A stretch of DNA of 64,000 bases from Amylibacter sp. SFDW26 (lineage in GTDB: Bacteria > Pseudomonadota > Alphaproteobacteria > Rhodobacterales > Rhodobacteraceae), in assembly GCF_009184395.1 (NCBI RefSeq), contig NZ_WEIC01000004.1:1-64000 (forward strand). Reading direction: 5' to 3'. The position numbers and the translations under genes are program-made. Position 1 is the stretch's first letter. Each line of letters opens with the position of its first letter. Of the stretch, positions 2,410-51,769 are shown in pieces. Below the pieces are notes generated by a model. It had not been told where the DNA came from. It did no database searches and saw only the letters and a program-made list of their open reading frames with translations.

Positions 2410-3513
2410 ATGACGCCAATAATGCCCACATCTGCCACACGCCTGCCTGTCACTTTGCTGACTGGGTTTTTGGGTGCGGGTAAAACAACGCTTCTTAATG
2501 CAATATTGGCCAATGCCGTTGGTACAAAGATTGCTGTGATTGTGAATGAGTTTGGTGAAGCTGGGCTTGACCATGATCTTATTCAAACCGTGGACGAAGA
2601 AGTCGTGTTGATGCAATCGGGGTGTTTGTGCTGTTCCATTCGCGGTGATCTGGCGCAAACTTTGCAAGACCTGATGGAGCGTAAACAGTCAGGCAACATA
2701 ACGTTTGACCGTGTGGTGATTGAAACAACCGGTCTTGCTGATCCTGCCCCAATTCTGCACACGTTATTGGTCGATCCATATTTGGCAAAGAACTTTCGTA
2801 TGGACGGTGTTGTGACAGTGGTCGATGCAGCGGCAGGCCCTGATACGCTTGATCGTCAATTCGAAGCTGTTTCACAGGTGGCAATGGCGGATTTGTTGGT
2901 GCTAAGTAAAACTGACCTAGTGCCAGAACATGAGTGGCATACATTTGAAACGCGCCTAAAATCACTGAACCCAACAGCAAGCATTTTAAAAGCCGATCGT
3001 GGTGTCGTTCCGACTACCTCTCTTTGGGGGCTGAGTGGTATGGATGAAACGGGGAAACCAGATCAGGTTATGGCGTGGTTGATACCGAATGATATCAAGC
3101 CCAAGCCAACATCATTGGATAATCTTTCGGGGTTGGCACCGTTCACGCCAACGAAAGCATTGCCACATGCACATGATGCGCGCATTGGTTCAGCATCAAT
3201 CGTGCTGGATGATCCCATTCCGTCTGACGTCTTTGATCTTTGGCTAGATACTTTAATCTTATTGCGCGGTTCTGATATTTTGCGTGTCAAAGGGATTGTG
3301 CACCTGGAGGGTATTGAAACGCCGTTTGTTTTCCATGGGGTGCAACACTTGTTTGATCCACCCGTAGCTTTATCAGATTGGCCAGGGGGTGATCGCCGTT
3401 CCCGTGTTGTTGTGATTGCGCGGGATATGACGAACCCAGAACTGGCCCGCAGTCTTGATATGTTGCGAAGAAATAAGTTTGAAGAAGATCATTCGGCTGT
3501 TGAGATACTGTAG
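2410..3513 (+). CDS. COG0523/CobW-family GTPase, probable zinc metallochaperone
   Basis: A G3E-family P-loop GTPase of 367 residues from the ATG (a TTG three codons earlier and an ATG four codons later are alternatives). Walker A GFLGAGKTT lies at residues 19-27, the family metal-binding motif CLCC at 72-75, and a CobW C-terminal domain with the RVKGIVHL segment near residues 290-300. Members load metals into client enzymes; the Zur-like palindrome over its promoter points to zinc homeostasis. It is a single-gene unit in the gap between rplW and rplB. The client protein cannot be read from the context, since the cobalt nitrile hydratase genes are 41 kb away. Confidence 0.85.
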   Translation: MTPIMPTSATRLPVTLLTGFLGAGKTTLLNAILANAVGTKIAVIVNEFGEAGLDHDLIQTVDEEVVLMQSGCLCCSIRGDLAQTLQDLMERKQSGNITFDRVVIETTGLADPAPILHTLLVDPYLAKNFRMDGVVTVVDAAAGPDTLDRQFEAVSQVAMADLLVLSKTDLVPEHEWHTFETRLKSLNPTASILKADRGVVPTTSLWGLSGMDETGKPDQVMAWLIPNDIKPKPTSLDNLSGLAPFTPTKALPHAHDARIGSASIVLDDPIPSDVFDLWLDTLILLRGSDILRVKGIVHLEGIETPFVFHGVQHLFDPPVALSDWPGGDRRSRVVVIARDMTNPELARSLDMLRRNKFEEDHSAVEIL

Positions 3514-3539
3514 TCTGTTGCGAAAGCTCTGCGTGAATA

Positions 3540-3740
3540 TTACCGAAACACCAAGCGTAACTTATTCCTAATACGGACCTCACCAACATTGGTTTGTTTT
3601 GTAAATGCGATGATGAGGGGGAGGAGTGGATCATCTGGGGTCAAGTGCCCTTCGTCAAACAACATCTGCAAAATTAATGATCTGGTGCGCTTGGTTATGT
3701 AAATGGTGTGCAAACTGTTGCTGTGTGGAAATATCATCAT
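3540..3740 (-). CDS. Conserved 66-aa small protein of the repeat cassette, copy A
   Basis: Begins [18 protein letters not shown] and contains MLFDEGHL and TNVGEVRIRNKL. No family recognised. Compared codon by codon with copy B (49885-50085), about 21 codons differ synonymously and only 8 change the residue, the pattern of purifying selection on protein sequence, so I take it as real despite its size. The ATG lies 14 bp after an AAGGGAG Shine-Dalgarno-like sequence, which is long spacing; in copy B a TTG two codons upstream is better placed, while copy A has a stop there. No signal peptide; short, basic and hydrophobic in the middle. It lies directly downstream of the structured RNA. Confidence 0.6.
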   Translation of the reverse strand: MMIFPHSNSLHTIYITKRTRSLILQMLFDEGHLTPDDPLLPLIIAFTKQTNVGEVRIRNKLRLVFR

Positions 3741-4016
3741 GGGCTAATACGCCGCTCCCTTAAATCAAATATACAAATGAAAACGGCCGTCGGATGATCC
3801 GACAGCCGGGGAGTTCGTTAGCCGCGTGAACCACGACTGCTATGACCTTTAGGCCGAAACCCTGGACATACGTCATAACCTCCCCGACCTTTGAATATCG
3901 AGAAGGTATCATTTCAGCTGACACCAGCTGGTTCACGTGGGGTAACGACACCCCGAGATGAGCTGTGGCTCATCCTGAGGTTAGGATAGGGGATGTGTTC
4001 GGGCTAGGGAAGGGGG
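3542..4016. repeat. Dispersed structured repeat cassette, copy A
   Basis: About 475 bp that aligns along its whole length with 49887-50360. On the minus strand it carries a structured RNA (about 3990 down to 3776) and then a 66-residue ORF (3740-3540). Left boundary is near CGAAACACCAA, right boundary near GGGCTAGGGAAGGGGG. No terminal inverted repeats, transposase or target duplication were seen. The next gene, divergent, begins 90 bp to the right; at copy B the spacing is 86 bp. Confidence 0.9.
3776..3990 (-). ncRNA. Candidate structured RNA with pseudoknot and terminator, copy A
   Basis: Read on the minus strand, 5' to 3': an ATCCT/AGGAT hairpin; GATGAGC/GCTCATC hairpin with CACA loop; GGGGT/ACCCC hairpin; stem strand at 3937-3930 pairing with 3832-3825 (GGTTCACG with CGTGAACC on the plus strand); internal CAGCTG hairpin (3915-3930); GGGGAG at 3885-3880 able to pair with CUCCCC at 3813-3808, which crosses the previous stem and forms a pseudoknot; TATGAC/GTCATA hairpin; and a 12-bp terminator-like stem (3784-3808) followed by TTTTC. 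Copy B changes several pairs but preserves pairing, and the wobbles are G.U only on the minus strand. The 66-aa ORF follows, so this may be a regulatory leader or an independent RNA. It does not match tmRNA, RNase P, 6S or SRP RNA by eye. Confidence 0.6.
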
Positions 4017-4105
4017 AATAAATTTTATAAATATTATGTGGTTTAATAAGTAGATTTCTTTTTAATAATAAGGATAGTTTTTAAATCTTATTTTGGAGCA
4101 GAAAA

Positions 4106-4870
4106 ATGCGCGAAAAGTGGAAAAGTATCCCCCCCGTAGGTCACTCAAGCTGGAATGATATAGAGGCTTGGATGAGCGCACATTATCCAGACGTATTCGA
4201 AGAATACTTTCCTGAGCGTAATCGGGGGGATAAATATTTTTGGTATAAAGAGGTTACAAAGCGGCTTGTTATTGGTTTGATAGGATTCATTATAGCTGCT
4301 ATTTTCTATTGGTATAATACAGTTAAGAACCCATCAGGTCTCTTTAATGTTGTAATTTTTCCCGACAGCTCAATTGGAATGTCGATAAATACATTTATGT
4401 TTTTTTTATTAGCAACATGTATTTCCGTTAGCCTGATTGTTTGCTGTTTCTTTTTATATAGAACTATTGTTTGTAAACGCTCTTTTGGAAAAGCGAATAG
4501 CATTGGTGCCCAAATTAATGAGTTAAAAGTTAAGTCCCAGACCCAACCGTCAGTAGTGGTCGGGGATCAAAGTACATTGAACATGAATTGGGGTAATGAA
4601 AGTATTGTGGGTGCTAATACTGTGTCTAATACTAACACTTATAATATTGGTGAATTTAACGCAGAGATAAAAAGACTGGTGCAATATTGCAGTTCTAATG
4701 AAGAGCAAGAGGCTGTAAAAATCGTACATTTTTTGCAACAGGCAATTGAGAAAGGTGAAAATAAATCAGTTATTTTTAAAATATGGAACCAGCTTTTCAA
4801 AGTGATTTCTGATGTTAATCAATTAGCTAAATTGGAAAACTATATAGGCCAATACTTTAATGGGCATTAG
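4106..4870 (+). CDS. Unknown two-TM membrane protein, island cargo
   Basis: 254 residues with a good RBS (GGAG 8 bp before the ATG). Predicted transmembrane segments at about 53-71 and 96-118. An Asn/Thr-rich stretch (VVVGDQSTLNMNWGNESIVG, then TVSNTNTYNIGEF) lies at about 150-185, followed by a helical C-terminal region (185-250). I recognise no named family; Asn-rich linkers between a membrane part and a helical module are seen in some predicted conflict-system proteins, but that is weak. The gene is much more AT-rich than its ribosomal neighbours, with many AAT/TTT/ATA codons, suggesting horizontal acquisition. It sits between repeat cassette A and a GC-rich hairpin repeat that begins at its stop codon. 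Confidence 0.75.
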   Translation: MREKWKSIPPVGHSSWNDIEAWMSAHYPDVFEEYFPERNRGDKYFWYKEVTKRLVIGLIGFIIAAIFYWYNTVKNPSGLFNVVIFPDSSIGMSINTFMFFLLATCISVSLIVCCFFLYRTIVCKRSFGKANSIGAQINELKVKSQTQPSVVVGDQSTLNMNWGNESIVGANTVSNTNTYNIGEFNAEIKRLVQYCSSNEEQEAVKIVHFLQQAIEKGENKSVIFKIWNQLFKVISDVNQLAKLENYIGQYFNGH

Positions 4871-4964
4871 CGCCCGATCCGAGGGTGGGTGTGAAGCACC
4901 CGCCCGTGGGGGCGGATCGGGTGCTGTCCGTGCCTTGCACGGACTGGGTGCGGAAAGCGCGGTG
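4870..4964. repeat. GC-rich multi-hairpin repeat (copy 1)
   Basis: Outer arms GCGCCCGATCCG and CGGATCGGGTGC enclose an inner hairpin (GGGTGGGTG with CACCCGCCC). A second hairpin follows, GTCCGTGC/GCACGGAC with CTT loop (4926-4944), then TGGGTGCGG and GCGCGGTG. The first base is the last base of the upstream TAG stop. The same modules recur at 51517-51728 and, in diverged form, at 14177-14247. It resembles REP/BIME-type elements. Confidence 0.8.
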
Positions 4965-5223
4965 TTTTGTAGGATCGTTTTGGTGGTTTGAGCGTCTAGA
5001 TGGCATTATGTGGCATGCTTGCAATCCCCAATAAAACAACGCTAAACCTATAGACAGTCCCCCCTATCCCTGATACTCCCACCCAATCGATTGGCTTCAG
5101 ATTCGTTCTGGGGCCTCTCATACTTTTTAAAGCCGAGTGTTTTGCACTCTGAATTGACGGACCTACGGGGCCGTATAACCACAGCGGTCTGCGGATCGCG
5201 CTAAAAACGGAAGACAGAAAGAA

Positions 5224-49884: not shown

Positions 49885-50085
49885 TTAACGAAACACCAAA
49901 CACAGCTTATTTCTGATGCGGATTTCGCCAACATTGGTCTGATTTAGAAAAGCGGTGATCAGGGGGAGGAGTGGATCATCGGGGTTCAGGTGCCCTTCGT
50001 CGAACAGCATCTGTAATATCAAATATCTGGTACGTTTGGTTATATAAATGGTGTGCAAACTGCTGCTGTGTGGAAAAATCATCAT
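49885..50085 (-). CDS. Conserved 66-aa small protein of the repeat cassette, copy B
   Basis: [18 protein letters not shown], then [17 protein letters not shown] and [16 protein letters not shown]. Eight replacements against copy A (N8S, S21Y, T34N, I44T, T47L, K48N, V54I, R62C) beside about 21 synonymous codon differences. A TTG at 50091, two codons earlier, has AAGGGAG about 8 bp before it and may be the true start. No homologous family recognised. Confidence 0.6.
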
Positions 50086-50360
50086 GGGCAAATACGCCGC
50101 TCCCTTAAATCAAATATACAAATGAAAACGGCCGTCGGTTTGATCCGACAGCCGGGGAGTTCGTTAGCCGCGCACGCACGACTGCTATGACCTTTAGGCC
50201 GAGACCCTGGACATACGCCATAGCCTCCCCGACCTTTGAAAATCGAGGAGTACCATTTCGGTTGATACCAACCGACGTGCGTGGGGTAACGACACCCCGA
50301 GATAAGCTGTGGCTCATCCTGCGGTTAGGATAGGGGATGTGTGGGGGCTAGGGAAGGGGG
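49887..50360. repeat. Dispersed structured repeat cassette, copy B
   Basis: Second copy of 3542-4016, same order: structured RNA and then the 66-aa ORF, both on the minus strand. One-base indels in hairpin loops and rewritten stems distinguish the copies, so the duplication is not recent. The TIR-domain cargo gene starts 86 bp to the right, divergent. Confidence 0.9.
50117..50335 (-). ncRNA. Candidate structured RNA with pseudoknot and terminator, copy B
   Basis: Same fold as copy A. Plus-strand coordinates: inner hairpin CGGTTG/CAACCG with ATAC loop (50259-50274) replaces CAGCTG/CAGCTG; long-range stem CACGCACG (50173-50180) with CGTGCGTG (50276-50283) replaces CGTGAACC with GGTTCACG; CTCCCC (50225-50230) and GGGGAG (50154-50159) keep the pseudoknot; the terminator stem keeps 10 pairs with a larger loop. 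CTATGGC/GTCATAG on the minus strand keeps pairing by one G.U. Confidence 0.6.
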
Positions 50361-50445: not shown

Positions 50446-51492
50446 ATGACTTCATTTAACCGTAATGAGATAATCCGTTTAATTAAAGCGTTTAACAAAG
50501 AGGCCGCAAAGCTACATGATGTAAGTATTGAACAGGTTGTAATCACACAGTCAAACCTTGGTAAACAAGAAGTTGAAAACTCTGGTCACTATGTACTTCT
50601 TTGGCAGTATTATGGCTCCGTTGGAGGTGATGATGATATTGAAAACCTTTTGGAGAATTTGAAGAGAAGTGATTTGCAGATTGGTATGAAAGGCGCAGAG
50701 CTTTCGCAATTTGCTATAGTTAAAGGAAAGAAGCAACAAAGGGATAAGTTTATTAAACTAGCTTTACGAGCTGGAAATTTGTTTAACAAAGAACAGGCAG
50801 AAGAAATAAAGCGTCGAGTGTTGAATGATATTACTGATGCCGAAAAGAAAAATAAACCATCAAAAAAACCTATTAGCGTAGTTAATGATAACGGCTTGGC
50901 TATTTGGATTAATTATCTAATATATTATTTATCGATCACTCATTCAGGAAGGGAATTTTCTAGGATTATTCAACCTGAACCTTTTACTCTCTCATTACTT
51001 GTTCTTGAAAAGTTGTTAGACGATGGAATGGTTGGAAAGAGTGATCGCTCAAACAAACGTATAGAAGACTTAGACTTTGAAGTTGCTGTTTCTTTTCCAG
51101 GTGAGCAGAGAAAATATGTTTCTGATGTAATGAAGGTTCTTCGGAAGGAATTAGGCGTTGATAAAGTATTTTATGATTTAGATTACCAAGCACAGCTAGC
51201 GCGTCCGAACTTAGATACTTTATTGCAAAGTATATACCATAAACGTTCTAAGTTGATCGTTGTATTTCTTGCTACTGAGTACAATGAAAAAGAATGGTGT
51301 GGCTTAGAGATGAGAGCGATAAGAGATATCATTAAAAGTAAAGATGATGAGCGTTTAATGTTTGTTAAGTTTGATGATGCGGTTATTGAAGGACTTTTTT
51401 CAATCGACGGATATATAGATGCAAAAGTAAACAAGCCGAGAAAAGTTGCAGAATATATCTTAGAACGAGTGAAGCTTATAAAAGATACTTAA
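50446..51492 (+). CDS. TIR-domain protein, candidate NAD-cleaving immune effector
   Basis: 348 residues. The C-terminal TIR domain spans about 209-345: DFEVAVSFPGEQRKYVSDVM opens the fold, IVVFLATEYNEKEWCGLEMR contains WC (284-285) and Glu288 at the position of the catalytic Glu of TIR NADases. Residues 1-205 form a Lys-rich, mostly helical region of unknown type (LIKAFNKEAAKLHDVSIEQV, EEIKRRVLNDITDAEKK). Single-protein TIR effectors act in anti-phage abortive infection by depleting NAD+; this is an inference. Very AT-rich compared with neighbours and enclosed by repeat cassette B and hairpin repeats. Confidence 0.85.
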   Translation: MTSFNRNEIIRLIKAFNKEAAKLHDVSIEQVVITQSNLGKQEVENSGHYVLLWQYYGSVGGDDDIENLLENLKRSDLQIGMKGAELSQFAIVKGKKQQRDKFIKLALRAGNLFNKEQAEEIKRRVLNDITDAEKKNKPSKKPISVVNDNGLAIWINYLIYYLSITHSGREFSRIIQPEPFTLSLLVLEKLLDDGMVGKSDRSNKRIEDLDFEVAVSFPGEQRKYVSDVMKVLRKELGVDKVFYDLDYQAQLARPNLDTLLQSIYHKRSKLIVVFLATEYNEKEWCGLEMRAIRDIIKSKDDERLMFVKFDDAVIEGLFSIDGYIDAKVNKPRKVAEYILERVKLIKDT

Positions 51493-51516: not shown

Positions 51517-51728
51517 GCACCCGCCCGTGGGGGCGGATCGGGTGCTGCTTTTGAAAAGCAAAAGCGGGGTGCGATTGGATGTGGTGTTTTGTATGATCGT
51601 TGTTTCAAGAATATCTGTGGGATCGGCTCTCGCGCATTGCTTTGCAATACGCTGCCGCTAGACCATTGCAAGCAATGGTCTTGGGTACTGTCCGTGCCTT
51701 GCACGGACTGGGTGCGGTAGGCGCGGTG
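51517..51728. repeat. GC-rich multi-hairpin repeat array (copy 3, extended)
   Basis: Starts with the 3' part of the copy-1 element (CACCCGCCCGTGGGGGCGG), then four hairpins: GCTTTTG/CAAAAGC (51547-51565), GCGCATTGC/GCAATACGC with TTT loop (51632-51652), AGACCATTGC/GCAATGGTCT with AA loop (51660-51681) and GTCCGTGC/GCACGGAC with CTT loop (51690-51708). The last module and its flank are nearly identical to 4919-4964. GTGTTTTGTA-N-GATCGTT also recurs at both loci. Confidence 0.8.
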
Positions 51729-51769
51729 ATTTGAATGATCCTTTTCGCCCTTAGCTCCGTAGAAAGGGC

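What the first reader, a model, noticed from the sequence alone, without database searches (positions are those of the whole stretch)
3542..4016. Two-layer repeat cassette: a pseudoknotted RNA followed by a 66-aa protein, duplicated at 49887-50360
Seen: both copies carry on the minus strand an RNA of about 210 nt with a terminator-like stem, then a 66-codon ORF. Hairpin 3915-3930 (CAGCTG/CAGCTG) is CGGTTG/CAACCG in the other copy, two fully compensatory base-pair changes; the long-range stem CGTGAACC/GGTTCACG is rewritten to CACGCACG/CGTGCGTG. Two stems keep pairing through G.U wobbles, and the terminator stem has one more; these are possible only on the minus strand. Inference: a selected RNA element linked to a small protein, perhaps a regulatory leader, a selfish element, or an RNA-protein system.
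Basis: partly seen in the sequence, partly recalled or inferred. Interest (0 to 1): 0.9.

Follow-up and report, generated by a model that had tools for sequence, protein, structure and literature searches.

The report
Widespread pseudoknotted switch-like leader RNA
The repeated cassette is a roughly 200-base knotted RNA just in front of a small gene; the same RNA sits in front of many unrelated genes, often on mobile DNA, in proteobacteria, and it looks like a built-in on/off switch whose trigger is unknown.

Summary
Both window copies (3540-4016 and 49885-50360, minus strand) carry a structured RNA followed by a 66-codon ORF; the genome has five such RNAs. In 19 related RNAs, 46 pairs in 8 helices, three of them crossing others, are 99.4% paired, with 25 pairs changed on both sides (0 of 500 shuffles).

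A covariance model finds the RNA in 22/394 genomes of the family and 48/385 of the class, own genome included, mostly in front of unrelated ORFs: 144 of 181 loci have a Shine-Dalgarno, start codon and ORF at +25 to +95 nt, against 433 of 3720 random positions. Strand B pairs with an upstream strand A or a downstream strand C; both pairings covary. C runs into a hairpin, terminator-like in 80 of 200 loci against 11 of 1000.

Rfam's sRNA-Xcc1 (87 nt) appears to be the 3' half of the same RNA.

I read it as a cis-acting attenuator with unknown trigger. The ORF66 link was seen only within the genus. In Amylibacter the RNA-ORF units border hot spots of exchangeable defence-like genes. All of this is inferred from sequence; nothing was measured.

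The parts
4006..4011 (-). -35-like TTCCCT of copy 1 (promoter proposed by eye)
   Evidence: 16-17 nt from the -10 in the genus copies checked by eye
3983..3988 (-). -10-like TATCCT of copy 1; transcript expected to start near 3975
   Evidence: inferred
3777..3977 (-). structured leader RNA, copy 1, including the terminator-like hairpin
3958..3973 (-). P1 hairpin ATGAGC/GCTCAT
   Evidence: alignment, read by eye
3939..3954 (-). P2 hairpin GGGG/CCCC; its loop (3944-3948) forms pseudoknot PK1 with 3815-3819
3825..3937 (-). P3 long-range helix: 3931-3937 with 3825-3831
   Evidence: 7 of 7 pairs changed on both sides
3906..3930 (-). P4 hairpin (3926-3930/3915-3919) with loop pseudoknot PK2 (3920-3924/3906-3910)
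3896..3905 (-). switch strand A
   Evidence: pairs with B, covaries
3880..3889 (-). switch strand B GGTCGGGGAG
   Evidence: pairs with A or with C
3839..3879 (-). P6 hairpin (3872-3879/3839-3846) with the conserved GTATGTCCA..CTAAAGG internal region
3820..3838 (-). P8 (3834-3838/3820-3824); its loop is the 3' strand of P3
3804..3813 (-). switch strand C CTCCCCGGCT, overlaps the 5' arm of the terminator-like hairpin
3780..3808 (-). intrinsic-terminator-like hairpin (C:D) with T run
   Evidence: sequence
3755..3761 (-). Shine-Dalgarno-like AAGGGAG
3540..3740 (-). ORF66, 66 aa, predicted b-a-a-b-b, no family match found
50121..50321 (-). structured leader RNA, copy 2 (B 50225-50234, C 50150-50159, promoter-like 50327-50355)
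49885..50091 (-). ORF66 of copy 2 (TTG start, or ATG at 50085)
4106..4870 (+). variable neighbour of copy 1: 254-aa protein with hydrophobic stretches, divergent from the RNA
   Evidence: no counterpart at the G032 site
50446..51492 (+). variable neighbour of copy 2: TIR-domain protein, divergent from the RNA
   Evidence: TIR_2 E 6.8e-8; the G032 site has a DRT6-like RT instead
4895..4990 (+). repeat R at the far end of the cassette
   Evidence: 6 matches in the genome, 5 of them at 4 of the 5 RNA sites
51683..51745 (+). repeat R at the far end of cassette 2 (part also at 51517-51547)

Best explanation
The feature is a cis-acting leader RNA, a self-contained promoter - pseudoknotted RNA - terminator/hairpin - Shine-Dalgarno unit that controls the ORF behind it by switching between two mutually exclusive helices. 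Strand B pairs either with A (A:B, inside the knotted 5' domain) or with C (B:C). When A:B forms, C is free to build the terminator hairpin C:D and transcription stops before the ORF; when B:C forms, the base of the terminator is taken away and the ORF is read. What tips the balance (small molecule, protein, ribosome or RNA polymerase state) is unknown. Supported by sequence: structure, covariation, strand, position before ORFs, the two competing helices, the terminator-like hairpin in part of the copies. Inferred: transcription, the promoter, the direction of the switch, and its trigger. The same unit stands before many mobile or variable genes; in Amylibacter it precedes ORF66 beside hot spots of exchangeable defence-like genes.
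For: Structure: (19 RNAs) and, for PK1, PK2, P8 and B:C, whose pairs the model did not contain, (102 RNAs; 271 double-sided cells against 85.1 +/- 10.9, 0 of 500 shuffles). Leader position: 144 of 181 loci against 433 of 3720 random positions; in fetched sRNA-Xcc1 loci 22 of 30 against 153 of 900. Unrelated downstream families. Competing helices: B:C 0.917 against 0.826 +/- 0.010 and A:B 0.900 against 0.832 +/- 0.007 (81 unique sequences); B:C computed as the stronger duplex in 118 of the 122 copies with a recognisable B motif. Hairpin directly after C in 100 of 200 loci (control 99 of 1000), with a T run in 80 (control 11). In 30 sRNA-Xcc1 loci a T5 run lies inside the leader in 23 (control 128 of 1500).
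Against: No transcript, ligand or reporter data. 37 of 181 loci lack a well-placed Shine-Dalgarno and ORF by my rule, and 100 of 200 lack the hairpin by my score, so the expression platform is not uniform. In one search one measure (pairs with a change on both sides, 17 against 14.2) was reached by 17 of 500 shuffles. In Xanthomonas the homologous 88-nt RNA was seen as a discrete small RNA (PMC2996969), and a trans role is in the title of a later paper that I could not read. Covariation of A:B may partly reflect that A and C both match B. Alignment A6 was fitted to the model for P2-P6.
Confidence: 0.74

Rival explanations
1. A trans-acting small RNA, as Rfam files sRNA-Xcc1: the RNA is made as a free ~200-nt (or processed 88-nt) molecule that acts on mRNAs or proteins elsewhere; the downstream ORF is incidental.
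For: sRNA-Xcc1 was seen on Northern blots and mapped by RACE at 88 nt (PMC2996969, passages read). The terminator-like hairpin would release a free RNA. RF02221 is typed 'Gene; sRNA'.
Against: A ribosome site and start codon at +25 to +95 nt in 144 of 181 loci before unrelated genes; covarying alternative helices that end in the hairpin fit a cis switch better than a free sRNA.
Confidence: 0.15
2. A two-part RNA-protein system: the RNA and ORF66 act together (for instance RNA-inhibited toxin or RNA-guided small protein).
For: RNA and ORF66 (or a diverged form) occur together at the five sites of this genome and of G032; in Xanthomonas integrons the related RNA precedes the toxin gene symE (PMC12444791, passages read; SymE also found here).
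Against: ORF66 found in 3 of 101 genomes; elsewhere the same RNA precedes methylases, pilins, porins, regulators. ORF66 has no family or fold match.
Confidence: 0.05
3. A mobile-element end or recombination site: the 476-bp unit, with repeat R at the other end, is the DNA boundary of exchangeable cassettes, and the fold acts in DNA.
For: At five sites shared by G000 and G032 the RNA and flanking genes align while the genes next to the RNA do not; R marks 4 of 5 sites in G000.
Against: 94 of 871 pair cells are G.U (summed), which pair only in the minus-strand RNA; a ribosome site is in place; three of the ten G000/G032 sites gave no R match (L007, L042, L045). The unit may still serve as homology for exchange.
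Confidence: 0.06

Closest known systems
sRNA-Xcc1 (Rfam RF02221)
   Same: Strand B, P6, P8 and strand C align in register: 43.5 bits on L099, 36.6 on L194, 35.3 on L111, 28.7 on L155. 29 of 30 fetched RF02221 loci were tested for the same 5' domain: PK1 mean complement 7.66 against 4.71 +/- 0.23, P3 6.90 against 4.29 +/- 0.22, 0 of 1000 shuffles each; 26 of 29 have a PK1 of 7 or more bases, 3 (L335, L351, L352) do not.
   Different: Rfam's model is 87 nt, typed as an sRNA gene, and lacks the 5' domain. It finds nothing in this genome up to E 10. Its scores on our RNAs are all below its cut-off of 53.
Transcription attenuators (trp-type 1:2, 2:3, 3:4 logic; recalled)
   Same: Three successive exclusive helices A:B, B:C, C:D.
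   Different: No leader peptide kept across the family (start codon lost in distant members); strands A and B sit in a fold with three crossing helices.
Riboswitches (general, recalled)
   Same: Compact knotted 5' domain with many invariant bases plus an expression platform.
   Different: No ligand known; the genes behind it share no evident pathway.
Integron gene cassettes and defence hot spots
   Same: sRNA-Xcc1 with symE is the most widespread Xanthomonas integron cassette (PMC12444791, passages). The Amylibacter cassettes differ in defence-like genes between species.
   Different: I did not search for attC sites or an integron integrase in the Amylibacter genomes.

Membership tests
sRNA-Xcc1 (RF02221) | score at or above Rfam's gathering cut-off (53 bits) | tested here: not met
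   window none; own genome none up to E 10; best distant member 43.5 bits
sRNA-Xcc1 (RF02221) | outer helix B:C enclosing P6 and P8 | tested here: met
sRNA-Xcc1 (RF02221) | shared 5' domain (PK1, P3) in RF02221 loci, which would make them one superfamily | tested here: met
   29 loci, 0 of 1000 shuffles; windows set after a first misplaced test
sRNA-Xcc1 (RF02221) | trans action under HrpG/HrpX control | not testable with these tools
   known to me from the title of the 2011 paper in reference lists and from passages citing it; paper not held
Transcription attenuator | terminator before the regulated gene | tested here: met
   both window copies; 80 of 200 loci with hairpin and T run
Transcription attenuator | mutually exclusive antiterminator supported by covariation | tested here: met
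Riboswitch | binds a ligand that changes expression | not testable with these tools
   no ligand evidence
RNA-protein toxin-antitoxin pair | RNA and protein always co-occur | tested here: not met
Defence-system cargo (neighbouring genes, not the RNA) | match to a PADLOC model | tested here: inconclusive
   RmrA, RT_UG20, PDC-M36A, Drt6 found; the 254-aa protein and the TIR, DUF2806 and AHJR proteins had none

The most novel reading that the evidence does not exclude
A very large, unrecognised class of switch RNAs, of which Rfam's sRNA-Xcc1 is a fragment, is the common control module of mobile and variable genes in proteobacteria: it senses one shared host signal (for instance stress or phage attack) and releases toxins, prophage antirepressors, ICE regulators, restriction enzymes and surface proteins.
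Probability: 0.35. Interest if true: 0.93.

Novelty: new variant of a known kind. Interest (0 to 1): 0.77.

Why it matters
If right, an RNA now filed as a short sRNA gene is the 3' half of a ~200-nt leader with three crossing helices that precedes SymE toxins, phage antirepressors, RovC/DUF2285-type regulators, methylases, porins, pilins and glycosyltransferases. A single orphan switch with such a set of genes would make it testable how mobile elements time the use of dangerous genes, and gives a search model for new mobile and defence genes.

Tried and rejected
Rfam gathering and permissive scans of the window: nothing (the four weak hits are far below their cut-offs). A translated leader peptide inside the RNA (GGGGAGG-ATG, 'MTYVQGFGLK'): the start codon is CTG, GCG or otherwise lost in distant members, so rejected. 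ORF66 by Pfam, NCBIfam, PADLOC and by fold (50 best rows seen of each): no match at E <= 0.001. A first, badly placed window for the PK1/P3 test gave weak results (8.03 against 7.37 +/- 0.23 for PK1, and for P3 6.03 against 6.17 +/- 0.18, no signal); I moved the windows to positions given by the RF02221 model and the alignment and reran, so the windows were chosen after the first result. Phage and plasmid collections with the window RNA: none in phages, one weak place on a Paracoccus plasmid. Paper searches for a prior description; no title or abstract start listed there describes this leader, but I read only passages of five papers and most subscription papers are not held.

Rows dropped: loci with under 250 nt behind the RNA and under 100 nt; rows without 4 nt behind the core, and duplicates, so 102 rows became 81; L343, loci without a picked ORF and L119, L146, L173, L102, L178, leaving the 91 proteins, L047, L049 and L053. 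In one search, 7 of the 80 listed genome loci were not given. For one search only copies with a recognisable B motif were used (19, 23 and 80). The sets 'dist', 'extra' and 'gtdb' share a few loci, so counts are not fully independent; the gtdb set was chosen by the B-strand motif. The 10 proteins were picked by eye from the 22 loci with an ORF.

Full report
Observation. Both copies exist as described. The 476-bp repeat ends at the stop codon of ORF66 on one side and just before the promoter-like sequence of the RNA on the other. A whole-genome search found five copies: four on one strand within about 160 kb of contig 7 and one on contig 8. By BLAST, 6 of 101 genomes match, own included; same-genus G032, G024 and G025 hold 5, 7 and 3 places. 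G032 is an uncultured Amylibacter (its contig length equals that of CANMGS010000001.1).

The RNA. Nineteen RNA cores were aligned with MAFFT. A structure of 46 pairs in eight helices, three of which cross others (PK1, PK2, P8), has 99.4% of 871 cells paired and 25 pairs changed on both sides, and no shuffle of 500 reaches any of the five measures. Slid controls pair 30-51% of cells. My sum of that table gives 94 G.U cells and 5 unpaired, so the fold belongs to the minus strand. On 102 RNAs aligned to a model without these pairs, PK1, PK2, P8 and B:C still covary (89.0% paired against 75.3 +/- 0.5; 271 double-sided cells against 85.1; 0 of 500 on four measures, 17 of 500 on the number of pairs changed on both sides).

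Spread. The model finds the RNA in 22 of 394 genomes of the family, 48 of 385 of the class and 21 of 398 of the phylum sample, own genome included; these samples overlap and the E-values are rough. Of 84 such sources given to the model, 83 have a full-length match, L267 none.

A leader. In 144 of 181 loci a Shine-Dalgarno, start codon and ORF of at least 50 aa lie 25-95 nt behind the RNA core, against 433 of 3720 random positions in the same loci. A sigma70-like promoter sits just upstream in many copies by eye. The ORFs are of many kinds: of 91 scanned, 8 match HTH_3, 6 RovC_DNA-bd (PF10074; DUF2285 is the name I recall for it), 4 OMP beta-barrel, 3 each glycosyltransferase 2 and PDDEXK_4, 2 DUF4268, 2 autotransporter, with single EcoRI-type and cytosine methylases (25 of 45 families shown). 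ORF66 is one such gene, found in 3 of 101 genomes, with diverged relatives in G024 placed by eye; its AlphaFold model (mean pLDDT 79) is b-a-a-b-b without a match at E <= 0.001.

A switch. Strand B (GGTCGGGGAG) can pair over ten bases with A upstream or with C downstream. In 81 unique sequences B:C pairs 91.7% of cells (shuffled 82.6 +/- 1.0) and A:B 90.0% (83.2 +/- 0.7), including changes such as GGGGTG/CACCCC, TGACTGGGAG/CTCCCAGTCG and, on the A side, CACTTTGACC/GGTCGGGGTG. Both cannot form at once. B:C is computed as the stronger duplex in 118 of 122. The last bases of C are the 5' arm of a hairpin that begins right there in 100 of 200 loci (99 of 1000 random positions) and is followed by a T run in 80 (11 of 1000). 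This gives A:B, B:C, C:D: attenuator logic. Half of the loci lack this hairpin by my score; several copies seen carry a GCGG-GGGCGNACC-GC hairpin there instead, whose role I cannot state.

The known relative. Rfam RF02221 sRNA-Xcc1 hits four distant members below its cut-off, in register with B to C. RF02221 itself occurs in 57 of 398 genomes of the phylum sample, 39 over the cut-off. The fetched loci carry the same 5' domain outside the Rfam model: PK1 and P3 complementarity exceed 1000 of 1000 shuffles in 29 loci, with 3 loci lacking a clear PK1 (an earlier run with misplaced windows had shown little). Of 10 downstream proteins picked there, 2 match SymE, 2 Bro-N, 2 Rha, 1 P22_AR_N, 1 KilA-N and 2 nothing. 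sRNA-Xcc1 was mapped as an 88-nt RNA in Xanthomonas (PMC2996969, passages) and lies upstream of symE in an integron cassette (PMC12444791, passages). So the Rfam entry appears to be the 3' half of a leader.

The Amylibacter cassettes. Five sites are shared by G000 and G032 by their flanking genes. The RNA aligns at all five and ORF66 with it at four; at rplW-rplB the BLAST match stops at the start of the ORF, and the region behind the ORF differs too. The flanking stretches align at 72-95% (the long ones at 77-95%), while the genes next to the RNA do not align. At the cmk site only a 176-bp stretch aligned on the far side within the DNA I fetched. Cassette genes include a TIR protein, RmrA, UG20 and DRT6 reverse transcriptases and PDC-M36A, an AHJR-like nuclease with RusA, and DUF2806. 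Of eight relatives fetched at rplB, rplW was in reach in two: G002, with about 300 bp between them and no RNA or cargo match, and G014, with 1.2 kb. Repeat R marks the other end at four of five G000 sites. RNA-ORF66 and R could serve as shared homology for swapping cassettes; that is inference.

Verdict. A cis-acting switch RNA is the best reading (0.74). The trigger is unknown. It belongs with known kinds (leaders, attenuators), but its knotting, spread and mixed gene set are new to me, and none of the paper listings I searched describes it.

Noticed in passing
L007 (G000 C7:161500-168000), RT at 2753-4315 minus: A DRT-type reverse transcriptase of group UG20 lies directly upstream of one RNA-ORF66 copy on the same strand (E 9.9e-206).
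   Followed up: partly
window 5157-5220 +: Alphaproteobacterial L2 ribosomal protein leader (RF03142) right behind the first cassette, so the cassette splits the ribosomal protein operon between rplW and rplB.
   Followed up: partly
L139, L140, L142, L143, L145 and others, 20-60 nt behind strand C: A conserved hairpin GCGG-GGGCGNACC-GC stands where other copies have the terminator-like hairpin.
   Followed up: no
L055 3554-3662 and L320: Second copies of the RNA close together on one contig, one of them a viral contig.
   Followed up: no
L327-L356, middle of the leader: Most sRNA-Xcc1 loci have a terminator-like hairpin with a conserved loop like CACCCG(A/T)CAG and a T run inside the 5' part; the loop could pair with strand B.
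   Followed up: partly
G000 C7 3.5-164 kb: Four of five copies lie on the same strand within about 160 kb, and four of five in G032 on one strand with similar spacing.
   Followed up: no
L063, L087, L091, L113: A tRNA (three loci) or the tmRNA gene (one) lies within about 1.5 kb of the RNA in 4 of 20 loci scanned, as for integrated elements.
   Followed up: no
L054 21-69 +: SAM/SAH riboswitch (RF01727) in a related locus.
   Followed up: no
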